From a virus, in IMG/VR virus record IMGVR_UViG_3300021378_000113, positions 1 through 28,870 of that record: a stretch of 28,870 nucleotides of DNA; one strand, given 5' to 3'. The notes beneath the pieces were generated by a model. The model searched no databases. It was given only the letters and a program-made list of their open reading frames with translations, and was not told where the DNA came from. The translations under genes were made by a program, and so were the position numbers. Of the stretch, positions 585 through 28,783 are shown one piece after another. The stretch's first letter is position 1. Every line of letters starts with the position of its first letter.

Positions 585-592
585 CAAATGTA
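585..592 (-). promoter_or_regulatory. TAnnTTTG-type box upstream of the sigma-like gene
   Basis: The minus strand reads TACATTTG 14 bases before the ATG at 570, matching the Bacteroidetes -7 consensus TAnnTTTG. No clear TTG element is seen about 20 bases upstream, so only half of the expected promoter is present. An imperfect dyad (CAAC-AGAAA-GTTG) lies further upstream near 630-642 and could be an operator. Confidence 0.4.
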
Positions 593-11411: not shown

Positions 11412-11442
11412 TAAATAACTTTTTTTTCGTGTTTCTGTTGCA
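11412..11442 (-). promoter_or_regulatory. Candidate late promoter before the second LamG gene
   Basis: The minus strand has TGCAACA (11442-11436), 15 bases, then AGTTATTTA (11420-11412), three bases before the ATG at 11408. It is an exact match to the upstream half of the shared motif, with one change in the downstream half. Confidence 0.5.
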
Positions 11443-11443
11443 T

Positions 11444-12205
11444 TTAAGGAACGTCTGCGCTTCGTGTTACTCCGTTTGTTAATGTTCCGTTATTGCCTCC
11501 GCTTCCGCTATCTGTTGCAGTTGTTCCACTACCTTCAAAACGCCACCAAGATACTAAACCACTTATGCTTGAAATATCTGAAGGAGTACCGCCTCCATAG
11601 ATAGATGTTATGTCGCTTTGTGATAACTCTGTATTAAAAATACTTACTTCGTCCATTGTACCGCTAATTTGAGATGCTGACGCGTTATATTTTCCTATTG
11701 TCAAAGGTGCTGTTGTGTTTTTCATTGCAGTATATGATTGTTTTATTACATTAGTAGATGTTTCTAAACTTCCGTTTATGTATATTTTCATACCATCTGC
11801 CGCATTACTACCGCCAACACCGCTATAAGTAGTAACTATATGAAACCAACTTCCTGTAGTTAGTTGTGTTGTGGAGTCTATACTCTGTTGGTTATTTCCA
11901 CCATTATTTTTTATAAAAAACCTTACTTTGTCACTATTGCTGAACATTCCTATAGCATACTCTCTATTCGGACTGCCATTGTCTTTTCCAATAAATACAT
12001 TAGTAGCACCGCTTAAACTATCTAAATTAACCCAAAAAGAAATAGAAAAAGGCGAATCAGTAGTACCATTTCCAAAAGATAAATTGCTATTGTCTGTAAC
12101 ATTTACAAAATCGTCAATTCCGTCAAGCAATATAGACTTTGTATTGCTAAAGCTTGGTGTACCGCTTTCAGACTGCGCTATGATTCCGTGCGTACTTACT
12201 AACAT
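11444..12205 (-). CDS. LamG-domain fibre/adhesin protein (paralogue 1)
   Basis: A 253-residue protein, almost entirely one LamG_3-like jelly roll: KSILLDGIDDFVNV, PFSISFWVNLDSL, GSWFHIVTTYSG, MKIYINGSLE, SGTMDEVSIFNTELSQSDITSIYGGG, then VSWWRFEG. The end (TRSADVP) parallels its neighbour. It is expected to bind polysaccharide or another glycan on the host surface. It begins directly at the previous gene's stop (TAATG at 12205). Together with the following LamG gene it forms a tandem duplication that has diverged, mainly at the N-terminus. Residues 1-12 could be a hydrophobic lead but not a convincing signal peptide. Confidence 0.78.
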   Translation of the reverse strand: MLVSTHGIIAQSESGTPSFSNTKSILLDGIDDFVNVTDNSNLSFGNGTTDSPFSISFWVNLDSLSGATNVFIGKDNGSPNREYAIGMFSNSDKVRFFIKNNGGNNQQSIDSTTQLTTGSWFHIVTTYSGVGGSNAADGMKIYINGSLETSTNVIKQSYTAMKNTTAPLTIGKYNASASQISGTMDEVSIFNTELSQSDITSIYGGGTPSDISSISGLVSWWRFEGSGTTATDSGSGGNNGTLTNGVTRSADVP

Positions 12206-12657
12206 TATGCTTCAAGGTTTCCAGCAACATACCAAAGGTCTGTACTCTTTTTAATCAATGTTGCAATGCCATATTGACCAACAATTTTAAGCTTGTTACC
12301 TTCTGCGTATAAATTAACTCCAAAAGATTTGCCTATACTTGTTTGACCTGTTCCAAGTTGCGCTACTAAAATTTGTGTACCTATTGGAAAAGCTACTGCG
12401 CTATTTAAAGGTATTATAATTTCATTTGCAGATGCGTTGTTTATTTCTACCATTTTATTTTGGTCTGTAAGCACCAAAGTATATGTAGCAGATTGCGTGT
12501 TAAATTCAATTTCTGTAAGTCCGCCTTTTAATTCTGCGCCTGTTATCTTTTTAGAAACATAACCGCCTGCGCCATCATCCTCAGCGATAGCAAACTCGTC
12601 TGTTCCTTCTAGATTACTTGCCTTTGCTGTTAGTTGGCTTATCCGTATTTCTGCCAT
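12205..12657 (-). CDS. Fibre-base/virion structural protein, 150 aa
   Basis: A 150-residue protein starting MAEIRISQLTAKASNLEGTD, a lead seen on many flavobacterial and other phage fibre proteins (MAExxISxLxxA). The second half is beta-rich (NKMVEINNASANEIIIP, IGTQILVAQLGTGQTSI, STDLWYVAGN) and resembles the repeat-like tip domains of fibres. It directly precedes the LamG proteins (TAATG), so it probably forms part of the same host-contact structure. No enzymatic residues are evident. Confidence 0.7.
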   Translation of the reverse strand: MAEIRISQLTAKASNLEGTDEFAIAEDDGAGGYVSKKITGAELKGGLTEIEFNTQSATYTLVLTDQNKMVEINNASANEIIIPLNSAVAFPIGTQILVAQLGTGQTSIGKSFGVNLYAEGNKLKIVGQYGIATLIKKSTDLWYVAGNLEA

Positions 12658-12724
12658 AATATTTATTTAAAAATGTTTCTAAACGCTTTACGTTCTTTTC
12701 CTTTGCTGTATATTTTCTTTTCAT
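12614..12724 (-). CDS. Possible 36-aa basic peptide
   Basis: A short Lys/Arg-rich frame (starts MKRKYTAKEKNVKRL, ends TNSKGK). Its ATG overlaps the stop of the connector gene as ATGA (12721-12724), and it fills the 63-base gap before the fibre-base gene, overlapping that gene by 44 bases. The coupling supports translation. The overlap and lack of any recognised family argue for caution. Confidence 0.4.
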   Translation of the reverse strand: MKRKYTAKEKNVKRLETFLNKYYGRNTDKPTNSKGK

Positions 12725-13221
12725 AAAACCCAACCTGCGAAGCCATTGTCTGTACTTGGATTTACGTCGGATCCTGTGTTACTTGAATACTCAGGAAATA
12801 ACGTACTGTTATCGCATATATAGTCAATGAACCTTTGTTTGTAATATTCTGCTGTTTGCCTTTCTTGCTCCCTTAAAAAATCAACCTCTTCTTTGCTTGC
12901 TGTTTCGCTGTTTTCGCTGCCATGTTTATAAATTCCTTTGTTGCCGATGGTATAAGCTCCGTAAGGCAAATACATGACCATTGCGTAATGTATTAAACAA
13001 GGCTTAATATAATCTTTAAGAAGGCTTAAATAAGGATCTGCAAGCGTTCCTGCAATAATATCTGCTTGTATCTTTTCTAGCAAATCCGTTCCTGTCATAT
13101 TTTGTATATGAATGTCCTGAGCCTGCGAAATATACTGAATGAATTTGTCAGTATCTATGTTACCGTTTGCCGATGTAAATTTAACTAGGTCAGCTCGTGA
13201 AATAAGTAGTGCTTTTGCCAT
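12721..13221 (-). CDS. Head-tail connector-like protein, 166 aa
   Basis: A 166-residue, mainly helical protein. It has the plan of short adaptor (head completion) proteins: an N-terminal helix pair (TDKFIQYISQAQDIHIQNMTG), a central LLKDYIKPCLIHYAMVMYLPYGAYTIGNKGI segment and a C-terminal helix (FLREQERQTAEYYKQRFIDYI). Similar proteins follow the portal in Bacteroidetes phages (DUF6712-like). It starts directly at the portal stop (TAATG at 13221), matching an adaptor that docks under the portal ring. The function is inferred from position and length rather than from a catalytic motif. Confidence 0.68.
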   Translation of the reverse strand: MAKALLISRADLVKFTSANGNIDTDKFIQYISQAQDIHIQNMTGTDLLEKIQADIIAGTLADPYLSLLKDYIKPCLIHYAMVMYLPYGAYTIGNKGIYKHGSENSETASKEEVDFLREQERQTAEYYKQRFIDYICDNSTLFPEYSSNTGSDVNPSTDNGFAGWVL

Positions 13222-15008
13222 TATCTTGCGTCTTTTGGTAGGTTAGGATTTTTGTCAGAAAAACCTTTATTAGGCATTACGTTTGGCATCATAGCAACCT
13301 CAGGTTCATTTTTAACTCTGTAGCCATAGGAGCGAGCTTTTGCAATGCTTATCTGTGATGTTTTAGGCGAGCCAATAGATGCGCTTTTATTAAAGCTTAC
13401 ATACGTTCTTCGCTGCCATTTATGGTGGCATCTAGGACCGCCCTTGTAAAGCCAAATGCTATACGTATCGCTGCCGCCTTCGCCAAAACCTTTATTTACT
13501 ATCTGACCGCTTAATCTTGTTATGTCTTCTTTTCTATAAACTTTGCTTGCTCTCATCATTGCTCTGCAAAAATCACGCTCAGGCGCATTATTGCCTACAT
13601 ATTGGTAACGCACTTTAAAAAACAATCCATCTATTTCTTTATCTTGCTCAGAGTTTTGATTTGGCGATGCGCTTCCTGTTCTAACTAAATTTACAAGCTT
13701 GTTTAAGGTTGTTTGTTTAGGCATTAATTCCTTAGTCCATTCTGCGACCTGCTTGTCAAAGTCATCCTCTAAATCGTAATTTACATCTCTGACATCTAAA
13801 AGCTCAAAACCTTCCTGCTCAGCATCTTCGCCTAGCTCTAAAAAATCTTGCAATTCTTTACTTAATCCGCTAAGCTCTAAGCCTGTTTCCTCTTGTACTT
13901 GCTCCTCAGTCATTGCATTCTCTAAATCAACAAACTCCAAAGGCTTTAACGTTCTAAAGAATAGGTTTAAACTGATTCCGTTATAGGCTAGAATCTGCTC
14001 AAAAGCATCTAGCAACAATTCCTGCATTGGCGCAATTATCATGTTTGAGAAAAGCGCAAAAGAGTCTTTTAATTCATCGGCATTTGATGAGAATCCGTTA
14101 CTGCTTGCTATTCCGAATAAAAGCGGGCTAGTGACGTTGTGAGAAAGCATAATTTTTCTTAAACATTCCTCGCTAAGCGTAGAGTATAAGTCAGGCGCAT
14201 CATTTACAGGCATTGCATCGACTGTCGTCTTGCTCTCTTGGTTGTTATTGAAGCTGACGATGACCTTGTCTCCTGTTGTTCCTGTAAGCTGAGAAAGCAC
14301 CTTGTTTTTAATCATTAGCTGCTGCTCTTCCGCAGGGACTCCATTGTTAAAATTGACAACGCTACGACCTGAGAAACCTCTCTCAACCTCGTTAATAAGG
14401 TATTCACTAATATCCTCTTCTAAAACGGTGTAAGGAATGCCTCCTGTATAATCTACTAAGGCGTAGTATTTCATGCCTACGCTGTAAGGCTTTACGAAAA
14501 ATATTTCTTGAGGATCATTTGAGCATCCGAAAGCGCTGATTCTTTTAGGTTCGTATTTTTTAACATCTGTCCAATCGTCAGAGTAGTAGTAACCTTCGAC
14601 TTTTCCGTCTTCGTTGCACTTTTCAGCTCGCAATAATTGTACAGGTATATGGTGCACCTGAGCAATTTTTTTTCTGTCCTTAGTGTAGATTACCTGCATA
14701 GCGCACTGCCCAAGTAGTTTAATATCTGTGCATAGATGCCTTACGCATTCTTTACTTAATAGCGCCATCATGTGAGCGTAATCGTTAGGCTTTCTGCTTG
14801 CATCTGTAGCTGATAGGCCTCTGCCATATACTAAACGGATAACGTTGTTTATAATAGCGTTATTTGTTGTGCTATTCGTGTATCTGTCGATGAGATACCC
14901 ATAATAATTGTTGTCATCTCCGTACTCAACCCAATTTTCTCGTTTTGATTCTTTGATTACAGGAGCCTCATAACCTGAAAGCTCTAATATGTGAACGTTG
15001 TTACTCAT
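13221..15008 (-). CDS. Portal protein with C-terminal Cys/His extension
   Basis: A 595-residue protein. The first two thirds fit a phage portal: an N-terminal wing (WVEYGDDNNYYGYLIDRY, NNAIINNVIRLVYGRGL), the KMKYYALVDY-like stem region and a helical NEFLRKI-like tail (ECLRKIMLSHNVTSPLLFGI, then SNADELKDSFALF). Residues about 380-440 are acidic. From about 470 on there is an extra domain with RDFCRAMM and GGPRCHHKWQRR that resembles, loosely, the C-terminal Cys/His/Arg segment of Mu F-type minor head proteins. A portal fused to part of a head-morphogenesis protein would explain the length and the lack of a separate minor head gene. It overlaps the preceding gene by 8 bases. Confidence 0.8.
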   Translation of the reverse strand: MSNNVHILELSGYEAPVIKESKRENWVEYGDDNNYYGYLIDRYTNSTTNNAIINNVIRLVYGRGLSATDASRKPNDYAHMMALLSKECVRHLCTDIKLLGQCAMQVIYTKDRKKIAQVHHIPVQLLRAEKCNEDGKVEGYYYSDDWTDVKKYEPKRISAFGCSNDPQEIFFVKPYSVGMKYYALVDYTGGIPYTVLEEDISEYLINEVERGFSGRSVVNFNNGVPAEEQQLMIKNKVLSQLTGTTGDKVIVSFNNNQESKTTVDAMPVNDAPDLYSTLSEECLRKIMLSHNVTSPLLFGIASSNGFSSNADELKDSFALFSNMIIAPMQELLLDAFEQILAYNGISLNLFFRTLKPLEFVDLENAMTEEQVQEETGLELSGLSKELQDFLELGEDAEQEGFELLDVRDVNYDLEDDFDKQVAEWTKELMPKQTTLNKLVNLVRTGSASPNQNSEQDKEIDGLFFKVRYQYVGNNAPERDFCRAMMRASKVYRKEDITRLSGQIVNKGFGEGGSDTYSIWLYKGGPRCHHKWQRRTYVSFNKSASIGSPKTSQISIAKARSYGYRVKNEPEVAMMPNVMPNKGFSDKNPNLPKDAR

Positions 15009-15351
15009 ACATTATAAATTCATTTGTGCTGACGTTAGAGATGTACTCGCCATCATTTACGGAATAATTAACTACAGGCGTTTGGTCAGTTACAAAGATT
15101 CTGTCTTTATGCACTATCGTTGCGCCATTCCTAATTTCTAGGGTATAAAAGGTATCTTTAATAAGGCTAAAAGTTCCATTTACAAACGTTGCGTTTATAG
15201 TATCGTAATAATCTCCATTTACGCTGCTTGTAATTGTTATCTCAGTTTCTACATTAGTAGATTCGCCTCTGATAAATAAACCGTCATAGGTTTGGCTTCT
15301 AGGTATAAAGCTAAAACTCTGCTCTGTCAATATAGGCTGTAGTATTATCAT
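15001..15351 (-). CDS. Beta-rich structural protein, 116 aa
   Basis: A 116-residue, nearly all-beta protein (FSFIPRSQTYDGLFIRGE, ETEITITSSVNGDYY, TFYTLEIRNGATIVHKDRIFV), resembling an Ig-like or small virion accessory fold. Not recognised at family level. It opens the portal transcription unit after the terminator at 15405-15432, is preceded by the AGTTATATA late motif, and overlaps the portal start by 8 bases. A head decoration, connector or tail-tip role is possible. Confidence 0.65.
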   Translation of the reverse strand: MIILQPILTEQSFSFIPRSQTYDGLFIRGESTNVETEITITSSVNGDYYDTINATFVNGTFSLIKDTFYTLEIRNGATIVHKDRIFVTDQTPVVNYSVNDGEYISNVSTNEFIMYE

Positions 15352-15357
15352 GCTGTA

Positions 15358-15388
15358 TATATAACTGATTTTGATATTATTTGTTTCT
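15358..15388 (-). promoter_or_regulatory. Candidate late promoter of the portal unit
   Basis: The minus strand has AGTTATATA (15366-15358) preceded at 15 bases by AGAAACA (15388-15382), a 5 of 7 match to TGCAACA. It is 6 bases before the ATG at 15351 and downstream of a terminator. Confidence 0.45.
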
Positions 15389-15404
15389 TATTGGATCCTA
15401 AACA

Positions 15405-15432
15405 CAAAAAAAGCGCCTATTTCTAGACGCTT
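15405..15432 (-). terminator. Rho-independent terminator after the tail tube gene
   Basis: The minus strand has AAGCGTCT, a 6-base loop, AGGCGCTT (15432-15411; 8 pairs with one G-T), then a T run to 15406. It is 29 bases after the stop at 15461 and before the candidate late promoter at 15358-15388. Confidence 0.85.
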
Positions 15433-15460
15433 AATTACACATTATGAAAGGTAAGGAAAC

Positions 15461-16057
15461 TTATACTGTTCCGTCATTGATAATAGCATCTCCTGCGCTA
15501 TTTGCAAATAATGTTTTTAGAGCCGCCTCAGACGACGCTAATAAGAAGTTCGCAGGTAGTTCCTCTTGAGCTGTGAACGTCAGCGAGTAGCCGTTGAAGT
15601 CTCCGAGCGCCGCTCCGCTAGAAATTTCTCCTGCAGAAACGTCTGCGCCTTGATCTAAGCCCATTAAAAAGAATTGGTCTGTCATAGTCCTCACAATGAT
15701 TCTTGGACGACCATACGCCAAAAGTTTCACATTCTTGTGAGTTACAACGTCTTGTCTCTTTAATGCTGCTACTAAAGTTTGTTCAAAGAAGGTTGTCCCA
15801 TTGTCACGTGAGCTGTTTATAGCTGTCGTGAACGAATTGGCTGTACTCTTCAATTCGAATTTGTAAAGAGTTAATTGAGTTGTATCGTCGACAGGAATCC
15901 AATCTGTAATTTCGTCAACGTTATCTCCTGTTCCGTAAGTTACATACGTTGGAGAATCTGAGTTTAGGTCCTCGTAATTGATTAGATACATGGCTTTTAA
16001 TCCGCTTACGGAATCCTTGCATTGTTCAATTCGACCTGCTGTGATATCACACGCCAT
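15461..16057 (-). CDS. Probable major tail tube / virion structural protein
   Basis: A 198-residue protein, beta-rich, beginning MACDITAGRIEQCKDSVSGL, a start typical of a conserved structural protein encoded after the capsid in flavobacterial phages. Other landmarks are TTQLTLYKFELKSTANSF, TFFEQTLVAALKRQD and YSLTFTAQEELPANFLL. Length and predicted fold fit a tail tube subunit, though a second head protein is not excluded. It is flanked by terminators on both sides (16078-16109 before it, 15405-15432 after it), so its dose can be set separately from the capsid and portal. Confidence 0.6.
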   Translation of the reverse strand: MACDITAGRIEQCKDSVSGLKAMYLINYEDLNSDSPTYVTYGTGDNVDEITDWIPVDDTTQLTLYKFELKSTANSFTTAINSSRDNGTTFFEQTLVAALKRQDVVTHKNVKLLAYGRPRIIVRTMTDQFFLMGLDQGADVSAGEISSGAALGDFNGYSLTFTAQEELPANFLLASSEAALKTLFANSAGDAIINDGTV

Positions 16058-16077
16058 TTTATTTAAGTTTTATGAAT

Positions 16078-16109
16078 AAAAAAAGGCAGGCAATCTTACC
16101 CACCTTTTT
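16078..16109 (-). terminator. Hairpin terminator or attenuator after the capsid gene
   Basis: The minus strand has AAAAAGGTGGGT, a 6-base loop, GCCTGCCTTTTT (12 pairs including three G-T), then Ts to 16078. It lies 18 bases after the capsid stop at 16127 and 20 bases before the tail tube ATG at 16057. It probably reduces expression of the downstream genes relative to capsid. Confidence 0.75.
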
Positions 16110-16126
16110 CTAATTCTGATTAATTA

Positions 16127-17064
16127 TTAAGAATAAACTACGCAATCGTTAGCAATACCCACTTGAGCGCCACAAGACATACGCATTACAATTCTCACGT
16201 TATCTGATCCGTCGTATAAATGAACAGGAATTACAGCCGCCTCTTGGTGGTCTGAAAGTAGAGATGTTCCGAAGTAAAGGTTGCTAGTTTGAGCTGCTAC
16301 CATGTTATCATCTGCCAATCCGTTAGCAACAAATACAGGAATACCATCAAAAGATAATGCTCCGTTAGTGTACCATTGCGTACCCTTGTTGTCTGTACCG
16401 TTAGCTCCAAGACCTGCTGCTGCAAATCCGCCAAGCGCTCTTACGTAAGCTCTTGCAACGTTAGAAGCAACATACAATTTAAGATCCTCAGCGCCGTAAA
16501 CAGTTGTAGGAATAGCGTCGACCACCTTTCCCATCTCGTCGATGACGTTTGCTGCGTCTATACCTGCAACAACCTTAGCGATGTCCTGAGCTGCAGGAAG
16601 GCCTGCTGCATTTAAGATTGTTACGATACCATCGTAAGCATTTGCTCCTGCAACACCTGACCATAATAAAGTCTCGTTAGATGCAGCTACTTTAGAAGCA
16701 ACATAACCTAGTAGGTAATCTTCAAAAGACTTAGGAATGTCTGCGAATGCAGATGCTCCCATCTCAGCCGCTGACCATGAATTATGGAATTGAGAGCGAC
16801 AAAGCTGTAGGTTTACTTGCATATCTTTAACCTGTAAAACAGATTCGCCCATAGTTACGGTACGAGTATCGTCAAAGTCGCAAGTTGCGTCAGTTAATAA
16901 TGTGTTAGTATCCAAAGTCTGTAAAACTTCTTTGAATTTAACGTTTTCTAAAACGGTTACTCCACCGTTTTCAATAGTTGGTGCGCTTAAAAGTGCCGCA
17001 GAGATGTATTACCTGCTGCTTGACCTGCATAAGTGCTTCCGGGAAAAGTTGGCTGTTCTGCCAT
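16127..17064 (-). CDS. Major capsid protein, frameshifted by one base near the N-terminus
   Basis: The main open frame runs from 16915 without a good upstream gene. A short frame from the ATG at 17064 (MAEQPTFPGSTYAGQAAGNT) reaches a stop at 16987. In the other frame the protein continues upstream of 16915 with ALLSAPTIENGGVTVLENV. Joining them needs one extra base around 17000-17013 and gives about 312 residues, a normal capsid size. The lead MAEQPTFPG, the DATCDF segment and the QLCRSQFHNSWSAAEMG segment are typical of major capsid proteins of flavobacterial phages. It follows the protease and scaffold genes. The frameshift is most simply an assembly or sequencing error in an essential gene. 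Confidence 0.8.
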
Positions 17065-17087
17065 AATTTTTAGGTTTTAATTATTAA

Positions 17088-17711: not shown

Positions 17712-17730
17712 TTTATTATTTGTTTCTAGG

Positions 17731-17761
17731 TATATAACTGAATAATGCTATTTCTGTTGCA
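17731..17761 (-). promoter_or_regulatory. Candidate late promoter of the scaffold-capsid unit
   Basis: The minus strand has TGCAACA (17761-17755), 15 bases, AGTTATATA (17739-17731): the full shared motif without mismatch, 19 bases before the scaffold ATG. Confidence 0.6.
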
Positions 17762-17769
17762 AATTGGTT

Positions 17770-18123
17770 TTAATTAGCCGCTATACAAGCAGCGCAATCA
17801 ACGTAATTGACTACTGAATCTATATGCAAACCTGAGCCTGAAATTGTTTCTGTAACGGTATAGCATCCATTATGATGAGCATTAGCAAAATCAAAATAGT
17901 AAACATTACCTACGATTAACTCTGTTCCATGTATATGAACGTTGTGATGATGGCCTGTAGAACAATGCGTTATTTTGTACTTATAGGCGCTAGATACATC
18001 TCTAGTAGTTCTGCCAATGCCTTGCGCCCATATAGAACCATCGCAACATTTTACGTCGTATGTTCCGTTTTTACATAGGCAAGCTTTCCTGCCTCCTAGT
18101 CTCCCTGTTTGGCTGCTTTTCAT
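17770..18123 (-). CDS. Cys/His-rich structural or accessory protein, 117 aa
   Basis: A 117-residue protein with cysteines in pairs (KACLCKNGTYDVKCCDGS near 14-29; CAAC near the end) and a His cluster (HCSTGHHHNVHIHG, about 53-66). Beta-rich, and it may bind metal or form disulfides. Similar proteins with VGNVYYFDFANAHHNGCYTV occur near head genes in flavobacterial phages, with unknown role. Coupled by ATGA to the protease gene (18120-18123). Virion decoration or a tail-tip role are options. Confidence 0.6.
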   Translation of the reverse strand: MKSSQTGRLGGRKACLCKNGTYDVKCCDGSIWAQGIGRTTRDVSSAYKYKITHCSTGHHHNVHIHGTELIVGNVYYFDFANAHHNGCYTVTETISGSGLHIDSVVNYVDCAACIAAN

Positions 18124-18692: not shown

Positions 18693-18695
18693 GTC

Positions 18696-18726
18696 TATAT
18701 AACTTAATTTTATTTAAAGTGTTGCA
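18696..18726 (-). promoter_or_regulatory. Candidate late promoter of the protease unit
   Basis: The minus strand has TGCAACA (18726-18720), 15 bases, AGTTATATA (18704-18696), three bases before the protease ATG. The TGCAACA half lies in the last codons of the tape measure gene. Confidence 0.6.
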
Positions 18727-20848: not shown

Positions 20849-23241
20849 TACGGTTGTTGTTGTATAAATATTTGATTTGCTACTTGTGTTCCATCAGGAT
20901 AATCATAAGTAACAGTAATTGTGTAAATCTGAACATCTCCCTGTTCTGTTCTTATCCTTATAAAATCCTCCGAGTTTATGTAGTTTGCATTATCCTCAGT
21001 TACAAGCAAATCTAATGTATTAGGATTCGCAGGAATGCAAACCTCTACTGAGCCATCTGTTGACAATGTACTTGGCGTTATGGTTACGCCTGCATCTGTT
21101 GTTGTTATAGTTGCATTATTTGTGCCATTAGGAAATAATATGCGTACATCAATACATTGCGCTTGGTCAGATGGTTGAATAGGTACAGGTGGTTTGCCTC
21201 CGCCCTCTCCGATAACCTCAGTAAAATCATTTAATAAAACGAAATCAACTTGGCCTGTGGTTAGGTTAGACTTCATGTCATTAATGGTATAGCGTTTGTC
21301 TCTGATTACAAGCCTGTCATTTAGCTTGAGATTTGTAAGCAAGCTAATCGGTAAATATGTTTTTATACTTGTTTCTCTGTTCTTTAGATTAAAAAGATTG
21401 CTAAGGTAAGGCCTATAGTAAACGCTATACAATGTGTTTGGCACAATAGCATCTAGGAGCGTGCTAATATCTGCATTGAAGTTAAGCGTATAGTTTACGT
21501 TTTGGTATAAAAGATCCTGACCAAAAGGAACGTATGTAATTAATTCCTCAGGCGTTGTATTATCTGTAAATCTAAACGATGTTGCAAGGTTGTCATATTG
21601 GTATAATATAACAGGCTTTGGCGTGTACTGATTGCCATCTACATTCAATGCTTCGCCTATCTGTAGGTTAGTACCTTGAAATTTCTGCATCATGAGATTC
21701 TCAAAAGGTAATTTTACATTGAAATCGCCACCATCATAATTGAATGATTGCCTCGTGTTTCCGTAGCTTCTGCTTGTTAAATCTCTAAATATTGTATTTG
21801 TTGCGCTCTCGCTTTCCTCATACTCAAAGCTCAGATTTTTAAACAGCTTAACTCTGTCTATATTTATGCTTTCAACATCTGTATATTCTGTAATATCCAC
21901 AACAGCGCCTTTGTTATACCAATCTGCTAAAGGTTCTATTTGAAATTGATCAGCCTCTGTTCCGTAGCAAGTCAAGTTAAACATTTTTAGGATGCCTGCA
22001 AAGAAATCTGCCACCTTCATTTTAGGAACGTAGTTTATAACGTTCATCTCAGCAGTCAATGCAATGTTGTTTGCTGTAGCTGTATATATGTTTGGGATTG
22101 TTGCAGAAACTCCGCCTGCTATATATATGACTGCCTCCTGCGTGTAATTTATGGTAAAATCTAGGTTTATTGCATCGTCAGCTTTAACATTAAATTTTAG
22201 CTGCTTATTCAGTATTTCTGTATTGTTGTCTAAAGCCACAAGAAAATCGCCTGTTCCTGAGCCTTCTAATGTTTGTACTAGCTGATTGTTTTGGAATACA
22301 TCAATGTAATAAGTATCGCTTGTACTTGCGCTAGTTACGTTTATAGATATTCTGTGAAATATGTCTAGTATTTCAAATCCTGATGCGCTTGTACCCGGAA
22401 ACATATCAGCAGGAGATTCAAAGCCATATGTAAGCGTATTATCTGCTATACTAAAATATGTACTTGCAGGGTTCGTGTTTTCGCCTGTTGCGTAATTAAT
22501 TGCTGTAATATCTAAAACCTCAGGAGCTGTTAAAAATTTAAAACTATTGGAGTTTTGGCATAATAAAAAAGCTTTGTTAAATCTAGGATCCGAAAAGAAT
22601 GTGCCGCTAAATGTTATACCGTGTCTTGTTTGTAAAGCATTGAATACTGCTAAAATCTGAATGGCAGGGAATAGCTCGTCATAATGTACTGCGCCTGTTC
22701 CTGTACTATAATTAATATCTGTACTACCTCCATTACCATAGGTTATATCTCTGTCAAATATTAGCGGATATCTTACGCCATAATTAAATGCTCCGTTTGT
22801 GATTCTGTTCTTTACTTCTATTGCATCGTAAGGATGGTTATAAACATCTAGCTCAGTAACATCGCTCAACATCTCATCGCCAAACTTATCCTTAAGGCTT
22901 AAAACATCTCCGTAAAAAGTTATTTGATAGCTGTAAGCTTTATTGTTTTTTACCTCTGCTTTTTCTAGGCTTATTTTACCCCTACGGAATGGCGTTAAAT
23001 CAATCTCTATATTTGCATCTCGCCTGATGTTAAAGTCTAAAGTGCTGTTTACATCATTCTGATAAAAGTGTTCAAATATTTTATTGTTGGTAGGAGTTGC
23101 AGGCACCGAAAAAGACTGCGAGAAATCGGTAAAAACTTTGCTTATATCTTGAACGTTCTGTTGCGTAGATGTTACGCTGATAGTTTCGTCATCAAATAAA
23201 TCTAGCCTTTGTCCTTCTATGTAAACCTGTACTATTCGCAT
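20848..23241 (-). CDS. Large beta-rich tail protein (distal tail/hub-like), 797 aa
   Basis: A 797-residue protein opening MRIVQVYIEGQRLDLFDDE, then a segment typical of flavobacterial tail proteins (VFTDFSQSFSVPATPTNNKI; FNIRRDANIEIDLTPFRRG). The N-terminus resembles Dit/hub proteins that attach to the tail end. The centre (about 150-640) is beta-rich and Asn/Thr-rich. Near 690 a Gly/Pro hinge (GEGGGKPPVPIQPSD) leads to a C-terminal Ig-like region (residues about 705-797). It probably forms the tail tip and contacts host glycans or peptidoglycan. It begins at the stop of the 370-residue gene (TAATG at 23241). Confidence 0.72.
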   Translation of the reverse strand: MRIVQVYIEGQRLDLFDDETISVTSTQQNVQDISKVFTDFSQSFSVPATPTNNKIFEHFYQNDVNSTLDFNIRRDANIEIDLTPFRRGKISLEKAEVKNNKAYSYQITFYGDVLSLKDKFGDEMLSDVTELDVYNHPYDAIEVKNRITNGAFNYGVRYPLIFDRDITYGNGGSTDINYSTGTGAVHYDELFPAIQILAVFNALQTRHGITFSGTFFSDPRFNKAFLLCQNSNSFKFLTAPEVLDITAINYATGENTNPASTYFSIADNTLTYGFESPADMFPGTSASGFEILDIFHRISINVTSASTSDTYYIDVFQNNQLVQTLEGSGTGDFLVALDNNTEILNKQLKFNVKADDAINLDFTINYTQEAVIYIAGGVSATIPNIYTATANNIALTAEMNVINYVPKMKVADFFAGILKMFNLTCYGTEADQFQIEPLADWYNKGAVVDITEYTDVESINIDRVKLFKNLSFEYEESESATNTIFRDLTSRSYGNTRQSFNYDGGDFNVKLPFENLMMQKFQGTNLQIGEALNVDGNQYTPKPVILYQYDNLATSFRFTDNTTPEELITYVPFGQDLLYQNVNYTLNFNADISTLLDAIVPNTLYSVYYRPYLSNLFNLKNRETSIKTYLPISLLTNLKLNDRLVIRDKRYTINDMKSNLTTGQVDFVLLNDFTEVIGEGGGKPPVPIQPSDQAQCIDVRILFPNGTNNATITTTDAGVTITPSTLSTDGSVEVCIPANPNTLDLLVTEDNANYINSEDFIRIRTEQGDVQIYTITVTYDYPDGTQVANQIFIQQQP

Positions 23242-24353
23242 TATACTACAGTTTGAATTAAATCGTAAGCAAAATCAAAAGTAAGCTCGTAATTTATAAC
23301 GCCTTTATTTATGCCTCTTTGCTTTAATAGGCTTTTTGTTTGAACGTTTACAGGCGTATATACTGCAGTAAATAATCCGTCTTTTTGCTCAGGATCGTAT
23401 AGCATAACTTTTTCAGATAGCAATAGCTCTTGTATATACTCTCCGTATAAATCATTTACCCATCCTGTATTTAGCTTTATTGATTCCGTTCCGTTTTTAT
23501 TAAATTCTCTTACTTGACCGTCAGAGCTAGGATAAGAAGGCAACGTGCTTGGATTTACTTTGTAGGTTTCTGCCTTTACGTTTACGTTTCGCGTTTTTGC
23601 TTTTTGAAAAAAGATACGCGCCCAACTTCCATAACGATTTATGAAGTCAACAGCTACAGGCGAATATTTTGGTTCGCATTGTGGTCTAAAGTATGCAGTC
23701 CAACGCACAGACGTTCCGCTTACTAAATACTCCACTTTGTTACCATCTGCAATGTAAGGCAAATAAACTCTGCTAAATGTTTTTATGCCATCTAAGGTTG
23801 CTGTTACTGTATGCGTTGCTCCACTAGATAGGTTCGTATATCTGATTGCATCCGTTGCTGCTAAATCAATATCAAAGCTTCCTGCCATGTTTATAATTAC
23901 AGCAGATGAAAGAGCGCTGTCATGATTGTAGAAATATGTACCCTCAGATAAAAATGGCGTGTTATTATAAGTATTTAGCGTTTCCATGTAATAGTTCAAG
24001 CCATACATAAACTCTTTAATATCGCTTGTTCCACCCGGAGTAATTAACGTATAATCTCCGTTGGTTTCTCTTTTGTATCTCTTAAAAACTACGTTTACTT
24101 TAAAATTCGTGTTTATATCCGCATCGTAAGTATTGTATAAATTCGGCCAATTTGTAAAGGTGTAATATTCGTTTACATATGGCGAGATATTATAATACGT
24201 CTTTATGTTGTTTGTAGCAGGAATTAACTTGCTTAAAGTATATTGCGGAGATAAAGGTTGCGGACCTGTTTGCCAAATAAACAGCTCTAGCTTTGAGCCT
24301 GTTTGCCCTGCTTCTGCTATTTCAATATTATAAGGCGAGCGTGAAGGTATCAT
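23241..24353 (-). CDS. Tail structural protein, 370 aa
   Basis: A 370-residue, beta-rich, Tyr/Asn/Thr-rich protein starting MIPSRSPYNIEIAEAGQTGS, with KLELFIWQTG, INPSTLPSYPS-like turns and an ending of NYELTFDFAYDLIQTVV. I do not recognise an exact family. It lies between the neck/tail-completion genes and the large tail-tip protein, with ATGA coupling to the former (24350-24353) and TAATG to the latter. A distal tail, baseplate or tail-tube-associated component is likely. No enzyme motif is visible. Confidence 0.65.
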   Translation of the reverse strand: MIPSRSPYNIEIAEAGQTGSKLELFIWQTGPQPLSPQYTLSKLIPATNNIKTYYNISPYVNEYYTFTNWPNLYNTYDADINTNFKVNVVFKRYKRETNGDYTLITPGGTSDIKEFMYGLNYYMETLNTYNNTPFLSEGTYFYNHDSALSSAVIINMAGSFDIDLAATDAIRYTNLSSGATHTVTATLDGIKTFSRVYLPYIADGNKVEYLVSGTSVRWTAYFRPQCEPKYSPVAVDFINRYGSWARIFFQKAKTRNVNVKAETYKVNPSTLPSYPSSDGQVREFNKNGTESIKLNTGWVNDLYGEYIQELLLSEKVMLYDPEQKDGLFTAVYTPVNVQTKSLLKQRGINKGVINYELTFDFAYDLIQTVV

Positions 24354-24934
24354 TGTTTAAAGTTTTCTTGAGTTATTTTTTCTAGTAAATTTTCCATGCT
24401 GTTTTCTAAATCTAATCCGTATTTTTCTAGCAAATCATTAGGCAATCTTTTGAAATACTTTTCAAATGGCTTTGTAAAAAACAGCGAAGGTTTTATACCT
24501 CTGTTGTAAATGTTTCCTGCTATTATGTGAGCAATCGCTTTGTAATTTCCTTTTTTAAACCTGCCCTTTTCATCTCTGAGCCTAACATTTTTACGCTTTG
24601 CCCATGCTGTTAAACTCTTTACAAAGCTTCCCCAAGTTCCTCTATACCTTCCGCTTCCGAATTTGTATTGCGAGTTTGGAGCTTGCTGCCCTGTTATTTT
24701 TGCATTAGGCGAAATTTTGCTAGGATCCTTTCCCTTGACTCCCTCATCCTGAAACCAACCGTAATCATCCATTGTGAAGCTAATCTGTATAGAGTTCTTA
24801 GATTCTTTTACATACGATTTTAAGCTTTGAGCAAGCGCCCCTGAGCTTCTAGGCATTCCTTTCCTAGCCTCTTTGATAACCTTATCTCTAAAGTCATCTA
24901 AAACCTTCTGTACGTTCTCTAATTCCATTAGCAA
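24350..24934 (-). CDS. HK97 gp10-like neck/tail completion protein
   Basis: A 194-residue basic protein. It has RSSGALAQSLKSYV (residues about 25-38) and the WFQDEGVKGKDPSK and PSLFFTKPFEKYF segments expected in HK97 gp10-type head-tail joining proteins, which carry the G-x-L-x-x-S pattern at the N-terminus and a P-x-x-F near the end. A Lys/Arg-rich middle (AWAKRKNVRLRDEKGRFKKG) is notable. It overlaps the tail terminator-like gene by 7 bases. Gene order (gp10-like next to a terminator-like gene) supports the call. Confidence 0.7.
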   Translation of the reverse strand: MLMELENVQKVLDDFRDKVIKEARKGMPRSSGALAQSLKSYVKESKNSIQISFTMDDYGWFQDEGVKGKDPSKISPNAKITGQQAPNSQYKFGSGRYRGTWGSFVKSLTAWAKRKNVRLRDEKGRFKKGNYKAIAHIIAGNIYNRGIKPSLFFTKPFEKYFKRLPNDLLEKYGLDLENSMENLLEKITQENFKQ

Positions 24935-25380
24935 ATAGTCATTCCGTTTGGTATCAAAATATCTAGTGTCATCGCATGACCTGCGAGCTTATTCTCAAAG
25001 CGTTCTGTAAATGGTTCGCAAGTTGGATTGCCATCTATTTGGAATTTATCAGTCCATAAATCTCCCCTTCTTAACAAATCGTAACACCTGTTAAGAACAG
25101 CTAACATAGTATTAAGTATGTAAAGCTCGTTATCATTGCCATCGAATTTGTTTACTGTTTCTTGCTTTGATATGTCTGTAATATCCATCGCCAAGATTGA
25201 AATATTGTAGCGTATAACATTCTCTTCAAATGTTGCTGTATTTACAATGATATGCACAAGCGGAAATATCGTTTGTTTATTTAGGTCAACGTCAAAGATG
25301 TCTCCCTGAGTCACGGTGTTTACTAGAGCATCATTTGTAAAATGCTCTTTTAGTTTATCTATAATATCAAAGTAATTCAT
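24928..25380 (-). CDS. Tail terminator-like protein, 150 aa
   Basis: A 150-residue alpha/beta protein: an N-terminal helix (FDIIDKLKEHFTND), strand pairs (FPLVHIIVNTATF, VIRYNISILAMDI), a helical centre (YILNTMLAVLNRCYDLLRRGD) and a C-terminal strand (KLAGHAMTLDILIP). This layout and length fit tail terminator/completion proteins, which cap the tail tube. It is ATGA-coupled to the frameshift product of the chaperone gene (25377-25380) and overlaps the gp10-like gene. The precise family is not certain. Confidence 0.68.
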   Translation of the reverse strand: MNYFDIIDKLKEHFTNDALVNTVTQGDIFDVDLNKQTIFPLVHIIVNTATFEENVIRYNISILAMDITDISKQETVNKFDGNDNELYILNTMLAVLNRCYDLLRRGDLWTDKFQIDGNPTCEPFTERFENKLAGHAMTLDILIPNGMTIC

Positions 25381-25649
25381 CGCTTCATATTTTGTTTAAA
25401 TTCTCTTGCTTCAATTTCGTTTTTTTGCTTTTCGAACGTGAGATACGTGAGACATTGAGTAAGTCTTGTTGCTGTAACTTCGTCAAGCTTGGTAAAATCT
25501 CCTTTAGCGAGCGCATAGATGCTTCCATACCATCCCCATTGTTTGCTAAATTGATGTCGTTCTGAGTATTCGTTGAAGCTGTCATCTTCTTCGTCTCTTT
25601 CTGTAAATAACTGATTGTACTGCTCAGTAATTCGCTTCCTAAAGTCCAA
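25377..25649 (-). CDS. -1 frame C-terminal domain of the tail assembly chaperone
   Basis: A 90-codon frame whose only upstream start is a TTG inside a T9 run, so it is better read as a -1 frameshift extension of the 26137 gene: 163 codons plus about 90 give a 253-residue product. It looks like real protein (FSKQWGWYGSIYALAKGD, TQCLTYLTFEKQKNEIE), resembling conserved tail-chaperone C-termini in flavobacterial phages. Its stop overlaps the tail terminator-like start as ATGA, which supports translation to this end. It shares 265 bases with the zero-frame end of the parent gene. A homopolymer sequencing error is the main alternative. Confidence 0.65.
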   Translation of the reverse strand: MDFRKRITEQYNQLFTERDEEDDSFNEYSERHQFSKQWGWYGSIYALAKGDFTKLDEVTATRLTQCLTYLTFEKQKNEIEAREFKQNMKR

Positions 25650-26137
25650 AAAAAAACAGACGCGCTTATTGCAACATCTAAAGGAGCAAATCGCATTAAT
25701 TCCTGCATATCTTCATTTGGTTCGTAATCTACTATTTCGTACTTGTCTTTGTTCGTGTTTTTGATTGGCCTAAACATTACAGCCATTGCCTTGTGGTATG
25801 TTTTCCAATTCTGCAAATGATTCTCTAAGTCAACGTATTCCCCTAGCGTTATGTCATCTAATTTTGGAATAAATCCAAACTCAATATTTTTGATTTTAAA
25901 CTGTCTAATTAACTGCGGTCTTTCATTAAATACTTTTGTAAAATGGGCAATCAATTCATTTAAATCCTTCATTTGAATTTTAGCAACCTCGTTTAATTTT
26001 ATGCCGCAAAATATCTGTATCATTTTCTGAGCAATAAATTCCTCGTCGTTACTCTTTTCCTTCATAGCAATAAAATCCTGATACCTAGATAATGGTATTT
26101 CGGATAGGCTTGTAGGCAATAGTAAATCTACTTTCAT
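25385..26137 (-). CDS. Tail assembly chaperone (zero-frame product)
   Basis: A 250-residue protein. Residues 1-163 are the shared part: an N-terminus with LLLPTSLSEIPLSRYQDFIAM, a helical middle and an end at APLDVAISASVFF. The zero-frame C-terminus (WTLGSELLSSTISYLQKET, then NNGDGMEASMRSLKEIL) is protein-like but Lys/Ser-rich at the very end. Lambda G/GT-type chaperones bind the tape measure and guide tail assembly; most use -1 frameshifting as proposed here at 25648-25656. A late-type motif (AGTTATATA) lies 3 bases before the ATG. Unlike lambda, the two predicted products have almost the same length. Confidence 0.68.
   Translation of the reverse strand: MKVDLLLPTSLSEIPLSRYQDFIAMKEKSNDEEFIAQKMIQIFCGIKLNEVAKIQMKDLNELIAHFTKVFNERPQLIRQFKIKNIEFGFIPKLDDITLGEYVDLENHLQNWKTYHKAMAVMFRPIKNTNKDKYEIVDYEPNEDMQELMRFAPLDVAISASVFFWTLGSELLSSTISYLQKETKKMTASTNTQNDINLANNGDGMEASMRSLKEILPSLTKLQQQDLLNVSRISRSKSKKTKLKQENLNKI
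25646..25657 (-). other. Candidate -1 ribosomal frameshift site (T9 run)
   Basis: The coding strand reads G-TTTTTTTTT-GG at 25657-25646; codons GTT TTT TTT TGG in the zero frame become GTT TTT TTT TTG after a -1 step. The run satisfies the X-XXY-YYZ slippery pattern with all Ts. Confidence 0.6.
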
Positions 26138-26140
26138 AAT

Positions 26141-26171
26141 TATATAACTGATTTATGTGATTTTTGTACAC
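26141..26171 (-). promoter_or_regulatory. Candidate late promoter of the tail unit
   Basis: The minus strand has AGTTATATA (26149-26141), 3 bases before the chaperone ATG; 15 bases upstream is GTGTACA (26171-26165), which keeps only the final ACA of the upstream element. This is the weakest upstream half of the six copies. Confidence 0.35.
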
Positions 26172-27331
26172 TACAGAATATTGTAGCTTCCGTAATTCTT
26201 ATTCATTCCTAGCGTTTCCATCTCATGGTAGCGGACTGCGTCAAGCGCATGATTAAAATTGTCAATGGGTTTATTTAATCGCTTACCTGCTTTGTCAACA
26301 TCCCAACAATAAGACCTCAGCTCTTTTATTAGGTTTGTGCTGCTAGATGTAACTAGATAGCTTTGCGCCTGCATTACATCAATTCCATAGTTAACAGAAT
26401 CTCTGCCCTTTGTTACTCCTTTTATCGTGATTCCGTAGCGTTGTATGTCTGCGATGCTTTTAGGTTCTGCTGAGTCTGCGTAAACAGGTATAGATTTAGG
26501 CAATACTTTTGCTATATCGCTATTTAACATTCCTGTTTGGTATTTTACTTCGTTTAGGATTCGTGTTTCATTATGTTTATAGACTTCAATGATTGCGCTA
26601 GGATCGTTTGTGTAGCCAAAGTCAAGCCCTATACCTATCAATCTAGCATCCTGAGGAATCTTGTCAATAATTTTATAGTTGGTAAATACTGCGCCTTGTA
26701 ATTGTCCGAGTTCGCCGAGTCCGTAAACCTTCCACCAATTAGACCAATAACTACTCGTAGCTGCTTTTAAGCGATTCTTTTCAATCTGCTGAACAATACC
26801 CTCATCTAGGCCTTCATTGTCCTTGTAGGTTAAAATAATAAAATCAGCATCTGATTCGTCTTTTAGTTCGGTATGTACCCAAAACTCATTGGCAGGGTTA
26901 AAATCTAAAAAGACCTCTCGCTTTGTTCTTATTGCGAGTTCATTGTAAGCCTCAAAGTTTACATTATTGCACTCATTGATGTAAAGAATGTCTCTTCTCG
27001 CTCCTCTGAGTTTGCTGCTGTCATCGGCAGAAAAAAATTCTATAAAGCTACCGTTTGCAAATTCGTATTTTAAATGAGATTTATTAAAGCGCTCATCGAA
27101 ATATCTATTTGTCCATTTCATGATTTTAAGAAAGTCTCTTAATGCTCCCCTCCTTAAATGCGGAATGCTCTCGGCTATTATGCTAATCTCTAGGCCTGAT
27201 TGTTTAGTTGCTTTATCTATGAGAATGGGCAGGATCCCAAACGTCTTGCCTGCAGATGTGCCGCCTTGAATAATTTTAATTCGCTTTTTTAAAGCGAGTA
27301 TCTTATTTATCGCTGTCGTTCTCTGTAACAT
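26171..27331 (-). CDS. terL: Terminase large subunit (Terminase_3/PBSX-like)
   Basis: A 386-residue protein with all main terminase motifs: Walker A GGTSAGKT (23-30), Walker B DILYINE with catalytic E120 (114-120), coupling motif FNPAN (144-148), and nuclease acids D237 (GLDFGY), D286 (YADSAEP) and D364 (HALDAVRY). It packages DNA and cuts concatemers. It overlaps the small-subunit gene by 29 bases. The short length (most are 420-600) is within the range of the PBSX/Terminase_3 group. The packaging mode (cos or headful) cannot be read from sequence alone. Confidence 0.93.
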   Translation of the reverse strand: MLQRTTAINKILALKKRIKIIQGGTSAGKTFGILPILIDKATKQSGLEISIIAESIPHLRRGALRDFLKIMKWTNRYFDERFNKSHLKYEFANGSFIEFFSADDSSKLRGARRDILYINECNNVNFEAYNELAIRTKREVFLDFNPANEFWVHTELKDESDADFIILTYKDNEGLDEGIVQQIEKNRLKAATSSYWSNWWKVYGLGELGQLQGAVFTNYKIIDKIPQDARLIGIGLDFGYTNDPSAIIEVYKHNETRILNEVKYQTGMLNSDIAKVLPKSIPVYADSAEPKSIADIQRYGITIKGVTKGRDSVNYGIDVMQAQSYLVTSSSTNLIKELRSYCWDVDKAGKRLNKPIDNFNHALDAVRYHEMETLGMNKNYGSYNIL

Positions 27332-27635
27332 CAGGAAATAAAGGTTGTTCTATATTATGCTGCTCTATTTGTTGTATTGGCGCTCCGTAAGCTGAATCTA
27401 GCAGTTTCTGATATGCTTGCGTATCTCCTTCTCTAGCTCTTTTAATCAATGCTAAGGTCATTAAATCCTCTTGACTCATGTTTTCCTTTTCGCCTGTTAA
27501 TGGATTCTTTAGGTCTTGCTCAACGCTTAGCCATTTCTTTGCTATTGTACTTCTGTTTTTGCTGCCTACAGGTCTGCCCTTTGGGTTTCCGCTTTGCCCT
27601 TTTTTGTATGGTATTAAGTTCTCTTCGTTAGCCAT
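27303..27635 (-). CDS. DUF5681-type protein, probable terminase small subunit
   Basis: A 110-residue protein starting with the DUF5681 signature (YKKGQSGNPKGRPVGSKNR, residues 10-28), a basic, probably disordered DNA-binding lead, followed by helices (SQEDLMTLALIKRAREGD, QAYQKLLDSAYG) and an acidic C-terminus. DUF5681 proteins lie directly before terL in many phages and are taken as small terminase subunits that recognise the packaging site. The 29-base overlap with terL supports this. There is no classical winged helix, so the role is inferred from context. Confidence 0.72.
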   Translation of the reverse strand: MANEENLIPYKKGQSGNPKGRPVGSKNRSTIAKKWLSVEQDLKNPLTGEKENMSQEDLMTLALIKRAREGDTQAYQKLLDSAYGAPIQQIEQHNIEQPLFPDVTENDSDK

Positions 27636-27644
27636 GATATTATT

Positions 27645-28157
27645 TTAATTCAAAATTCGGCATTCGTGTCCTTGTTCTATTAATTTGTTATAAGTATTTT
27701 CTTTATGTTCTTCGTCTTTACATATTATTTCTATTCTATACAAATTATCAATAGTATCTGATATGTCTTTTATTTCAGGATCTTGATTTAACAAAACAGG
27801 TAAATCTAAACCCCAATCTTCTAACTCATCAACATCCCATTCATTAGCCAAGTCATCCCAATCCCACTCACCAAAGCCTACATTATCTTTAATAATAAAT
27901 TCTCTTTGTTGTTTCTCTGTTAGTTGGTCTGCTTTTATTATATGCACTTCTTTTAAACCTGCTTCTTTGCAAGCTCTCAATCTCATGTTGCCACCTAGTA
28001 CAATATTATCATTGTCAACTACTATTGGGCGTATCTCTAGCATCTCAGGAAACTCCTTTATTGAGCTTACAAGTTTCTTGAATTTATCATCCTTTATAAG
28101 TCTAGGATTGTTTGGGTTATTCTTTACCTCTGATATTTTTACCTTTTCTGTTTTCAT
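27645..28157 (-). CDS. ParB/Srx-fold nuclease-domain protein
   Basis: A 170-residue protein. Residues about 5-105 are a ParB-like domain: KISEVKNNPNNPRLI, then IRPIVVDNDNIVLGGNMRLRACKEAGLKEV (box with GGxxRLxA). A Trp/Asp-rich stretch follows (FGEWDWDDLANEWDVDEL), then a C-terminal part (YRIEIICKDEEHKENTYNKLIEQGHE) seen on phage ParB-like proteins next to terminase genes. Such proteins are often linked to DNA methylases, but none is present here. It could bind or nick phage DNA for packaging or regulation. The ATG follows the leader TAAAAAAACACGA. Confidence 0.8.
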   Translation of the reverse strand: MKTEKVKISEVKNNPNNPRLIKDDKFKKLVSSIKEFPEMLEIRPIVVDNDNIVLGGNMRLRACKEAGLKEVHIIKADQLTEKQQREFIIKDNVGFGEWDWDDLANEWDVDELEDWGLDLPVLLNQDPEIKDISDTIDNLYRIEIICKDEEHKENTYNKLIEQGHECRILN

Positions 28158-28167
28158 TCGTGTTTTT

Positions 28168-28590
28168 TTAGTATGCCTCGTAAACTTGTTTCATTTTATC
28201 AGCAATATCTCTTACGCAACTACTGCAGGTTGTTCCTGTGTCTTGTTTAACCTTGAATACTCTGTTGTATATCTTTATGAGTTTTACCTTGTCATGATGG
28301 TTTGCGCCTTTGCACCATCGTTCTGTATCATTATCCCAATGCTCTGCCATAAACTCTGATAGCCATTTGTATTCGTGTTCCTCTAGGCAATTCGGATTTC
28401 TGCGCCAAATCTTATTTAAAAATTCCTTACGCTCATCGCATCCGCAATCATCTCCTGCTAACCATTTAACCGCAGCTTTTATGCCTGTAGCTTCTGAAAT
28501 CTTTTCTACAATATCGCCTAAACCTTCCGCAGGCTGTTGCTTTTTCCATTCTTTGTACTCCTTTGTACGTTTGTCTAGTTTCTTTTTCAT
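28168..28590 (-). CDS. Cys-rich protein of the GLGD-DCGC type, 140 aa
   Basis: A 140-residue protein with AEGLGDIVEKISEATGIKAAVKWLAGDDCGCDERKEFLNKI (about 21-61), a segment that recurs in flavobacterial phage proteins of unknown function, and a C-terminal CSSC (about residues 122-125) followed by a helix. The two CxC/CxxC sites (DCGC near 49-52 and CSSC) suggest metal or redox chemistry. It opens the terminase operon and lies downstream of a good TGCAACA-N15-GGTTATACT match (28665-28695). The role is unknown; a packaging or regulatory function fits the position. Confidence 0.68.
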   Translation of the reverse strand: MKKKLDKRTKEYKEWKKQQPAEGLGDIVEKISEATGIKAAVKWLAGDDCGCDERKEFLNKIWRRNPNCLEEHEYKWLSEFMAEHWDNDTERWCKGANHHDKVKLIKIYNRVFKVKQDTGTTCSSCVRDIADKMKQVYEAY

Positions 28591-28600
28591 TCGTTTTTAT

Positions 28601-28783
28601 TTAGGATCCGCAATAAAGGCAATCGTCATCGTCTTGCTCAGGATTGTTTTCAATCTCAGGGTTAAGTATAACCTTTAATTCATAAATCTGTTGCATTAGC
28701 TCCATGTCTTCATACATATCGCCTGTTATTTTTGATTCTAGGCGCTTTATTTCCGCCTCAACGTCTTTTTTGTTTATAGCCAT
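28601..28783 (-). CDS. Small acidic protein with C-terminal CxxC, 60 aa
   Basis: A 60-residue protein: a charged helical N-terminus (KDVEAEIKRLESKI, then YELKVIL) and an acidic tail ending EQDDDDCLYCGS. The final C-x2-C may bind zinc or iron with a partner. Its start overlaps the sigma-like gene by 10 bases across the contig junction, so the two are coupled. No family recognised. The left contig end holds a partial copy with one amino-acid change (E to Q at residue 9). Confidence 0.68.
   Translation of the reverse strand: MAINKKDVEAEIKRLESKITGDMYEDMELMQQIYELKVILNPEIENNPEQDDDDCLYCGS
28665..28695 (-). promoter_or_regulatory. Candidate late promoter of the terminase operon
   Basis: The minus strand has TGCAACA (28695-28689), 15 bases, GGTTATACT (28673-28665). 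The upstream half is exact and the downstream core GTTATA is kept. It is inside the 60-residue gene, 74 bases before the ATG at 28590. Confidence 0.45.

What the first reader, a model, noticed from the sequence alone, without database searches (positions are those of the whole stretch)
11412..28695. Bipartite motif TGCAACA-N15-AGTTATATA ahead of six late transcription units: a candidate phage-specific promoter
On the minus strand, TGCAACA-N15-AGTTAT(A/T)TA occurs with exactly 15 bases of spacer at 11442-11412 (LamG 2), 17761-17731 (scaffold) and 18726-18696 (protease), and as TGCAACA-N15-GGTTATACT at 28695-28665 (terminase operon). AGTTATATA with a weaker upstream half, still at N15 after ACA, is at 15388-15358 (portal unit) and 26171-26141 (tail chaperone). 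All precede virion genes. None precedes early genes, which have TAnnTTTG boxes instead. The phage encodes a sigma-like protein (570-37) that could read it. At several sites the motif ends 3-6 bases from ATG, so transcripts would be nearly leaderless, or the motif may act in translation or as an activator site.
Basis: partly seen in the sequence, partly recalled or inferred. Interest (0 to 1): 0.85.

Follow-up and report, generated by a model that had tools for sequence, protein, structure and literature searches.

The report
Phage sigma factor's own late promoters
A small aquatic phage, probably of Bacteroidota bacteria, carries its own ECF-type sigma factor and a matching promoter (TGCAACA-15 bases-AGTTATATA) in front of its virion genes, placed so that most of the messages should begin exactly at the start codon; the pairing is conserved in dozens of relatives, but no RNA has been measured.

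Summary
The motif is real. Five of the six sites stand: ACA-N15-AGTTATnTA occurs 5 times in the window against 0.01 expected. The sixth (28695-28665, 'terminase') lies inside a conserved coding ORF and is dropped. In about 100 related contigs the spacer is 15 (14 and 16 as lineage variants), the motif is on the sense strand only, and in most sites the ATG starts exactly 12 bases after the A of AGTTA. That is where a transcription start is expected, so most late mRNAs should be leaderless; where the ATG lies further on, position +12 is still A in 13 of 14 sites. The 'sigma-like' protein (570-37) is an ECF-type sigma factor, encoded just before the terminase genes, itself behind a host-type TAnnTTTG box, and present in every long related contig tested. 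Where it has diverged, the -10 letters change together at the late promoters of that genome (AGTTA, CGTTT, ACTTA/G), while the ATG geometry stays fixed. Cultured Nonlabens phage P12024S repeats the design (CGTTA, 7 operons); Flavobacterium phage FpV9, without the sigma, shows none. Best reading: a phage ECF sigma drives leaderless late transcription. No such promoter turned up in the open papers searched. Transcript starts and sigma binding remain unmeasured.

The parts
18696..18726 (-). Late promoter of the head protease unit: -35 TGCAACA 18726-18720, N15, -10 AGTTATATA 18704-18696, predicted start at A18692 = first base of ATG (leaderless)
   Evidence: conserved before protease orthologs in relatives
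11412..11442 (-). Late promoter of the LamG-like gene 11408-10593: TGCAACA 11442-11436, AGTTATTTA 11420-11412, predicted start A11408 = ATG (leaderless)
   Evidence: found only in the window and not before LamG2 orthologs
26141..26171 (-). Late promoter of the tail unit 26137 onward: ACA 26167-26165, AGTTATATA 26149-26141, predicted start A26137 = ATG (leaderless)
   Evidence: conserved in 9 of 14 dereplicated orthologs
15358..15388 (-). Late promoter of the portal unit: ACA 15384-15382, AGTTATATA 15366-15358, predicted start A15354, 3-base leader to ATG 15351; a terminator-like hairpin (15432-15411) lies just upstream
17731..17761 (-). Late promoter of the scaffold-like/capsid unit: TGCAACA 17761-17755, AGTTATATA 17739-17731, predicted start A17727, 16-base leader to ATG 17711
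37..570 (-). Phage ECF-type sigma factor (177 aa), the predicted reader of the late promoters
   Evidence: TIGR02937 43.9 bits against cut-off 42.9; PDB profile hits SigL and SigW; Foldseek top hits ECF sigma factors
585..592 (-). Host-type -7 box TACATTTG of the sigma gene
   Evidence: in 10 of 14 dereplicated orthologs
28665..28695 (-). Claimed sixth site; judged coding sequence, not a promoter
28601..28783 (-). Conserved 60-aa ORF that contains the claimed sixth site; follows the sigma gene once the ends are joined

Best explanation
The motif is the late promoter of a lineage of small phages, apparently lytic, whose hosts are probably Bacteroidota. The phage encodes an ECF-type sigma factor, itself expressed early or in mid-infection from a host-type TAnnTTTG promoter. 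The sigma redirects host core RNA polymerase to TGCAACA (-34 to -28), N15, AGTTATATA (-12 to -4) in front of the separate virion-gene units. Transcription starts at the A that is +12 from the A of AGTTA. At most sites this A is the first base of ATG, so the late mRNA is leaderless; at the others a leader of a few to about 29 bases follows. Shown here: the sites, their statistics, conservation, geometry, sigma homology, co-occurrence and concerted divergence of the -10. Inferred: that this sigma binds these sites, the exact start, the late timing, and translation of leaderless mRNA.
For: Strict motif 5 against 0.01 expected. In portal-family relatives TGCAACA/AGTTATA spacing is 15 in 22 of 22 and at no other spacing from 8 to 23; ACA-N15-AGTTATA is 69 sense, 0 antisense. 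IMG/VR scan: 82 stretches at N15, over ten of them with two sites, against 32 at N14 with none holding two. Spacer-by-ATG-offset table peaks at (15,12) with 28 dereplicated sites, then 12 at (14,12), most other cells 0-4. Where ATG is elsewhere, +12 is still A in 13 of 14 sites, P about 0.002. Sites precede protease, portal-unit, tail and scaffold-unit orthologs, not early genes. Sigma: TIGR02937 above cut-off; PDB profile and Foldseek agree. Sigma homologs in all family records of 19.4 kb or more that were tested. Concerted -10 change within genomes: AGTTA; CGTTT at 4 operons; ACTTA/G with N14 at 3 operons; CGTTA at 7 operons in P12024S (0 of 20,000 shuffles). FpV9, without the sigma, lacks the motif.
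Against: No transcript 5' ends, no binding data, host unknown. Sigma homology is just above the curated cut-off in the window and below it in most divergent relatives. The AlphaFold model has pTM 0.42, so only the single domains are trusted. L095/L155 mix AGTTA and CGTTA in one genome. Sites in relatives are partly related by descent, so the counts are not all independent, and the genome table used for the concertedness shuffle was compiled by hand.
Confidence: 0.85

Rival explanations
1. The sites are late promoters, but a host ECF or other sigma (or the primary sigma helped by a phage activator) reads them, and the phage sigma-like protein does something else.
For: Bacteroidota are known to encode many ECF sigmas (own knowledge); the phage protein could act on other targets; the host is unknown.
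Against: The sigma occurs in every long related contig tested, near the terminase genes, and -10 letters shift together within genomes whose sigma has diverged. FpV9, with a related terminase but no sigma, lacks the motif.
Confidence: 0.1
2. The motif is a translation-initiation or RNA-level signal next to ATG, not a promoter.
For: ATG sits at a fixed distance in most sites.
Against: Two of the five sites in the window, and a dozen in relatives, have the ATG further downstream while the N15 spacing and an A at +12 stay. A -35-like half upstream with rigid spacing is not expected of a ribosome signal. In the portal unit a terminator-like hairpin lies directly upstream.
Confidence: 0.04
3. Chance plus shared descent: AT-rich sequence inherited with neighbouring genes.
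For: The loose form of the motif is barely above chance.
Against: Strict form 5 against 0.01; none antisense in relatives; the LamG site in the window lies before a gene whose orthologs lack it; the same geometry with other letters in P12024S.
Confidence: 0.01

Closest known systems
ECF (group 4) sigma factors and their promoters (e.g. B. subtilis SigW, M. tuberculosis SigL)
   Same: Two-domain sigma of about 170-190 aa; -35 with an AAC core and a fixed spacer to a short -10; TGCAAC-N16-AGTTA resembles TGAAAC-N16-CGTA of SigW (consensus from memory)
   Different: Encoded by a phage and apparently serving virion genes; no anti-sigma gene identified; ATG fused to the start site
Phage-encoded late sigma factors (T4 gp55, SPO1 gp28 and gp33/34; own knowledge)
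   Same: Phage protein redirects host core polymerase to late genes
   Different: ECF type with both -35 and -10 halves; T4 late promoters have only a -10 and need a co-activator; probably a phage of Bacteroidota
Bacteroidota primary-sigma promoters (-33 TTTG, -7 TAHHTTTG; F. johnsoniae, PMC6847099)
   Same: -7/-10 element begins at about -12; used here by early genes and the sigma gene
   Different: Other letters, strong -35 half, and 87% of the predicted host transcripts have leaders over 10 nt, whereas the late phage units are mostly predicted leaderless
Nonlabens phages P12024S/L (Inhavirus)
   Same: Sigma-70 region 2 protein just before the terminase genes and CGTTA-N7-ATG late promoters with the same geometry
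   Different: 25% sigma identity, other -35 and -10 letters; promoter system not described in the papers searched

Membership tests
ECF sigma factor | Full-length match to the sigma70-ECF family over its curated cut-off | tested here: met
   TIGR02937 43.9 bits against 42.9, residues 12-161
ECF sigma factor | sigma2 and sigma4 domains in about 170-190 aa with only a linker between | tested here: met
   Predicted helices 2-76 and 97-170; Foldseek top hits ECF sigmas, probability 1.00, but TM-score about 0.35 because domain orientation is uncertain
ECF sigma factor | Pfam Sigma70_r2 and Sigma70_r4_2 over the gathering score | tested here: not met
   Sigma70_r4_2 18.9 bits against 25.7 for the window protein; Sigma70_r2 at E below 0.01 in 9 of 19 members. 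So the family is reached by TIGR02937 and fold, not by Pfam; 'ECF-type' is used with that reserve
ECF sigma factor | Directs core RNA polymerase to a specific promoter | not testable with these tools
   Only the concerted divergence of promoter and sigma
Phage late promoter | Precedes virion genes and not early genes | tested here: met
Phage late promoter | Active late in infection | not testable with these tools
   No expression data
Leaderless transcription unit | Transcript 5' end at or next to the start codon | tested here: inconclusive
   Geometry and A at +12 fit; no 5' ends measured
Bacteroidota primary-sigma promoter | TAnnTTTG -7 element | tested here: not met
   Absent upstream of nearly all late-unit orthologs

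The most novel reading that the evidence does not exclude
A whole phage lineage switches the host both to a new sigma factor and to a new way of starting translation: late promoters are built so that mRNA begins at AUG, in hosts whose own mRNAs mostly have leaders. Sigma and promoter letters co-diverge between phages, keeping each phage's late programme separate.
Probability: 0.65. Interest if true: 0.75.

Novelty: new variant of a known kind. Interest (0 to 1): 0.64.

Why it matters
Late gene control in Bacteroidota phages is little described in the papers searched. This gives a concrete cascade (host sigma, then phage ECF sigma, then leaderless virion mRNAs) visible in dozens of environmental phages and in a cultured one (P12024S), so it can be tested now. 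It also offers a set of naturally diverged sigma-promoter pairs for the Bacteroidota, and a handle for finding late genes of unknown function by their promoter.

Tried and rejected
Loose motif scans (3 mismatches) are near chance. The 28695-28665 site was rejected as coding. The N14 spacing scan of IMG/VR served as a background control; a few of its hits are genuine family members with 14-base spacers. Non-family N15 hits in IMG/VR look like background or one repeated coding sequence. No nucleotide relatives of the late region in the phage collection, and no sigma homolog there by tblastn with the window protein; P12024S was reached through the portal. Genome collection: no convincing prophage, one weak 26% hit. 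The sigma-70 consensus scan was at chance level and uninformative. Literature searches found no description of this promoter; the library holds open papers only, and the original P12024S genome paper was not read.

Full report
WHAT IS THERE. The window is a 28,870-base IMG/VR virus record with nearly all genes on the minus strand. Its two ends overlap by about 133 bases with a few mismatches, so the genome closes on itself. Read on the minus strand, the gene at 570-37 is then followed directly by the 60-aa ORF 28783-28601 and the terminase genes. Terminase, portal, a head protease and virion proteins are recognised; ERF, NinG and an amidase lie in the other half.

THE OBSERVATION. ACA-N15-AGTTATNTA occurs five times in the window, all on the minus strand, against 0.01 expected from shuffles. 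Three of these have the ATG exactly seven bases after AGTTA, against 0.06 expected. TGCAACA itself is present at three of the five. The loose form (3 mismatches) is near chance, so the strict form carries the claim. The sixth site (28695-28665) is coding: MQQIYELKVI in a conserved ORF, changing at synonymous positions in relatives.

RELATIVES. Eighty IMG/VR loci encode a relative of the portal, 58 to 96% identical. In them and the window, TGCAACA and AGTTATA are 15 apart in 22 of 22 cases and never at another spacing from 8 to 23; ACA-N15-AGTTATA is on the sense strand 69 times and on the antisense strand never. A blind scan of 2.9 million viral contigs gave 82 stretches at N15 and 32 at N14; over ten N15 stretches hold two sites, no N14 stretch does, and the family sites nearly all have ATG three bases after AGTTATATA. 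By gene, counted with an exact pattern on dereplicated orthologs, the motif precedes the protease (7 of 15 at N15 and 4 at N14/16), the gene 15351-15001 at the head of the portal unit (16 of 22) and the tail unit at 26137 (9 of 14); more have close variants by eye. In the scaffold unit most relatives have the site before an extra small ORF. Portal, terminase and nearly all early genes lack it; ERF orthologs gave one match.

GEOMETRY. Counting dereplicated sites by spacer and by distance to ATG gives one peak, spacer 15 and ATG at +12 from the A of AGTTA (28 sites), with a shoulder at spacer 14 (12); most other cells hold 0 to 4, and the antisense strand shows no peak. In Flavobacterium the -7 element begins at -12 (PMC6847099), so an element beginning at AGTTA puts +1 at or next to the A of ATG. 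If ATG alone fixed the distance, +12 should be free when ATG lies elsewhere; yet in 14 such sites +12 is A in 13 and the dinucleotide at -1/+1 is TA in 9 (P about 0.002 against an A content of 53%). This favours a transcription start over a translation signal.

THE SIGMA. The 177-aa product of 570-37 passes the curated cut-off of the sigma70-ECF family TIGR02937 (43.9 against 42.9 bits). A profile of 19 homologs hits PDB ECF sigmas SigL and SigW, weakly (E 0.008 and 0.015); an AlphaFold model has two helical domains (mean pLDDT 78.7, pTM 0.42), and the top Foldseek matches are ECF sigmas. It misses the Pfam gathering scores. The gene has a TAnnTTTG box upstream in 10 of 14 dereplicated orthologs, as ERF does in 15 of 20. 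TIGR02937 finds the sigma in every family record longer than 19.4 kb that was tested; one 19.2-kb fragment lacks it.

CONCERTED DIVERGENCE. Genomes with 43-44% sigma identity have CGTTT instead of AGTTA at protease, scaffold-unit, portal-unit and tail promoters; the lineage at 33% has ACTTA/G and a 14-base spacer at three promoters. Cultured Nonlabens phage P12024S has a sigma-70 region 2 protein (25% identity) before its terminase and CGTTA, spacer 15-16, ATG at +12 (once +11), at seven operons. Flavobacterium phage FpV9, whose terminase is 53% identical, has no such sigma and no such motif. Agreement of the -10 letters within genomes was 0.96 and was reached by none of 20,000 shuffles of a hand-compiled table; L095/L155 are exceptions. 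Several operons changing letters together is what a trans-acting reader predicts.

MECHANISM. Host primary sigma transcribes early genes and the phage sigma; the phage sigma then directs core polymerase to the virion units, and most of these mRNAs start at AUG. The terminase genes have no late motif and probably follow from the sigma gene's own host-type promoter (inference). Timing, binding and leaderless translation are inferred.

NOVELTY. Phage sigma factors for late genes are known. An ECF-type one with both promoter halves, a fused start codon and co-diverging specificity in phages probably of Bacteroidota was not found in the open literature searched. It is rated a new variant of a known kind.

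Noticed in passing
window 1-133 and 28738-28870: The two ends are near-identical over 133 bases with a few mismatches, so the record is a closed (circularly permuted or circular) genome of about 28.7 kb although classed linear.
   Followed up: partly
L273 (NC_018271), 167, 3019, 5400, 21269, 23949, 25189, 26790: Cultured P12024S carries seven CGTTA-type late promoters, most with an AAAACAAA upstream half.
   Followed up: partly
L183, L175, L168, L165: A subset of relatives uses a 14-base spacer with the ATG distance unchanged.
   Followed up: partly
window 15432-15411: A terminator-like hairpin with a T run lies directly upstream of the portal-unit promoter; similar sequence precedes the promoter in relatives.
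   Followed up: no
window 18692-17088: Protease (18692-18120) and scaffold-like protein (17711-17088) match the two halves of one PHROG (24921), suggesting a split protease-scaffold gene with a promoter before each half.
   Followed up: no
L095, L155: One lineage has AGTTA before the protease but CGTTA before the portal unit.
   Followed up: no
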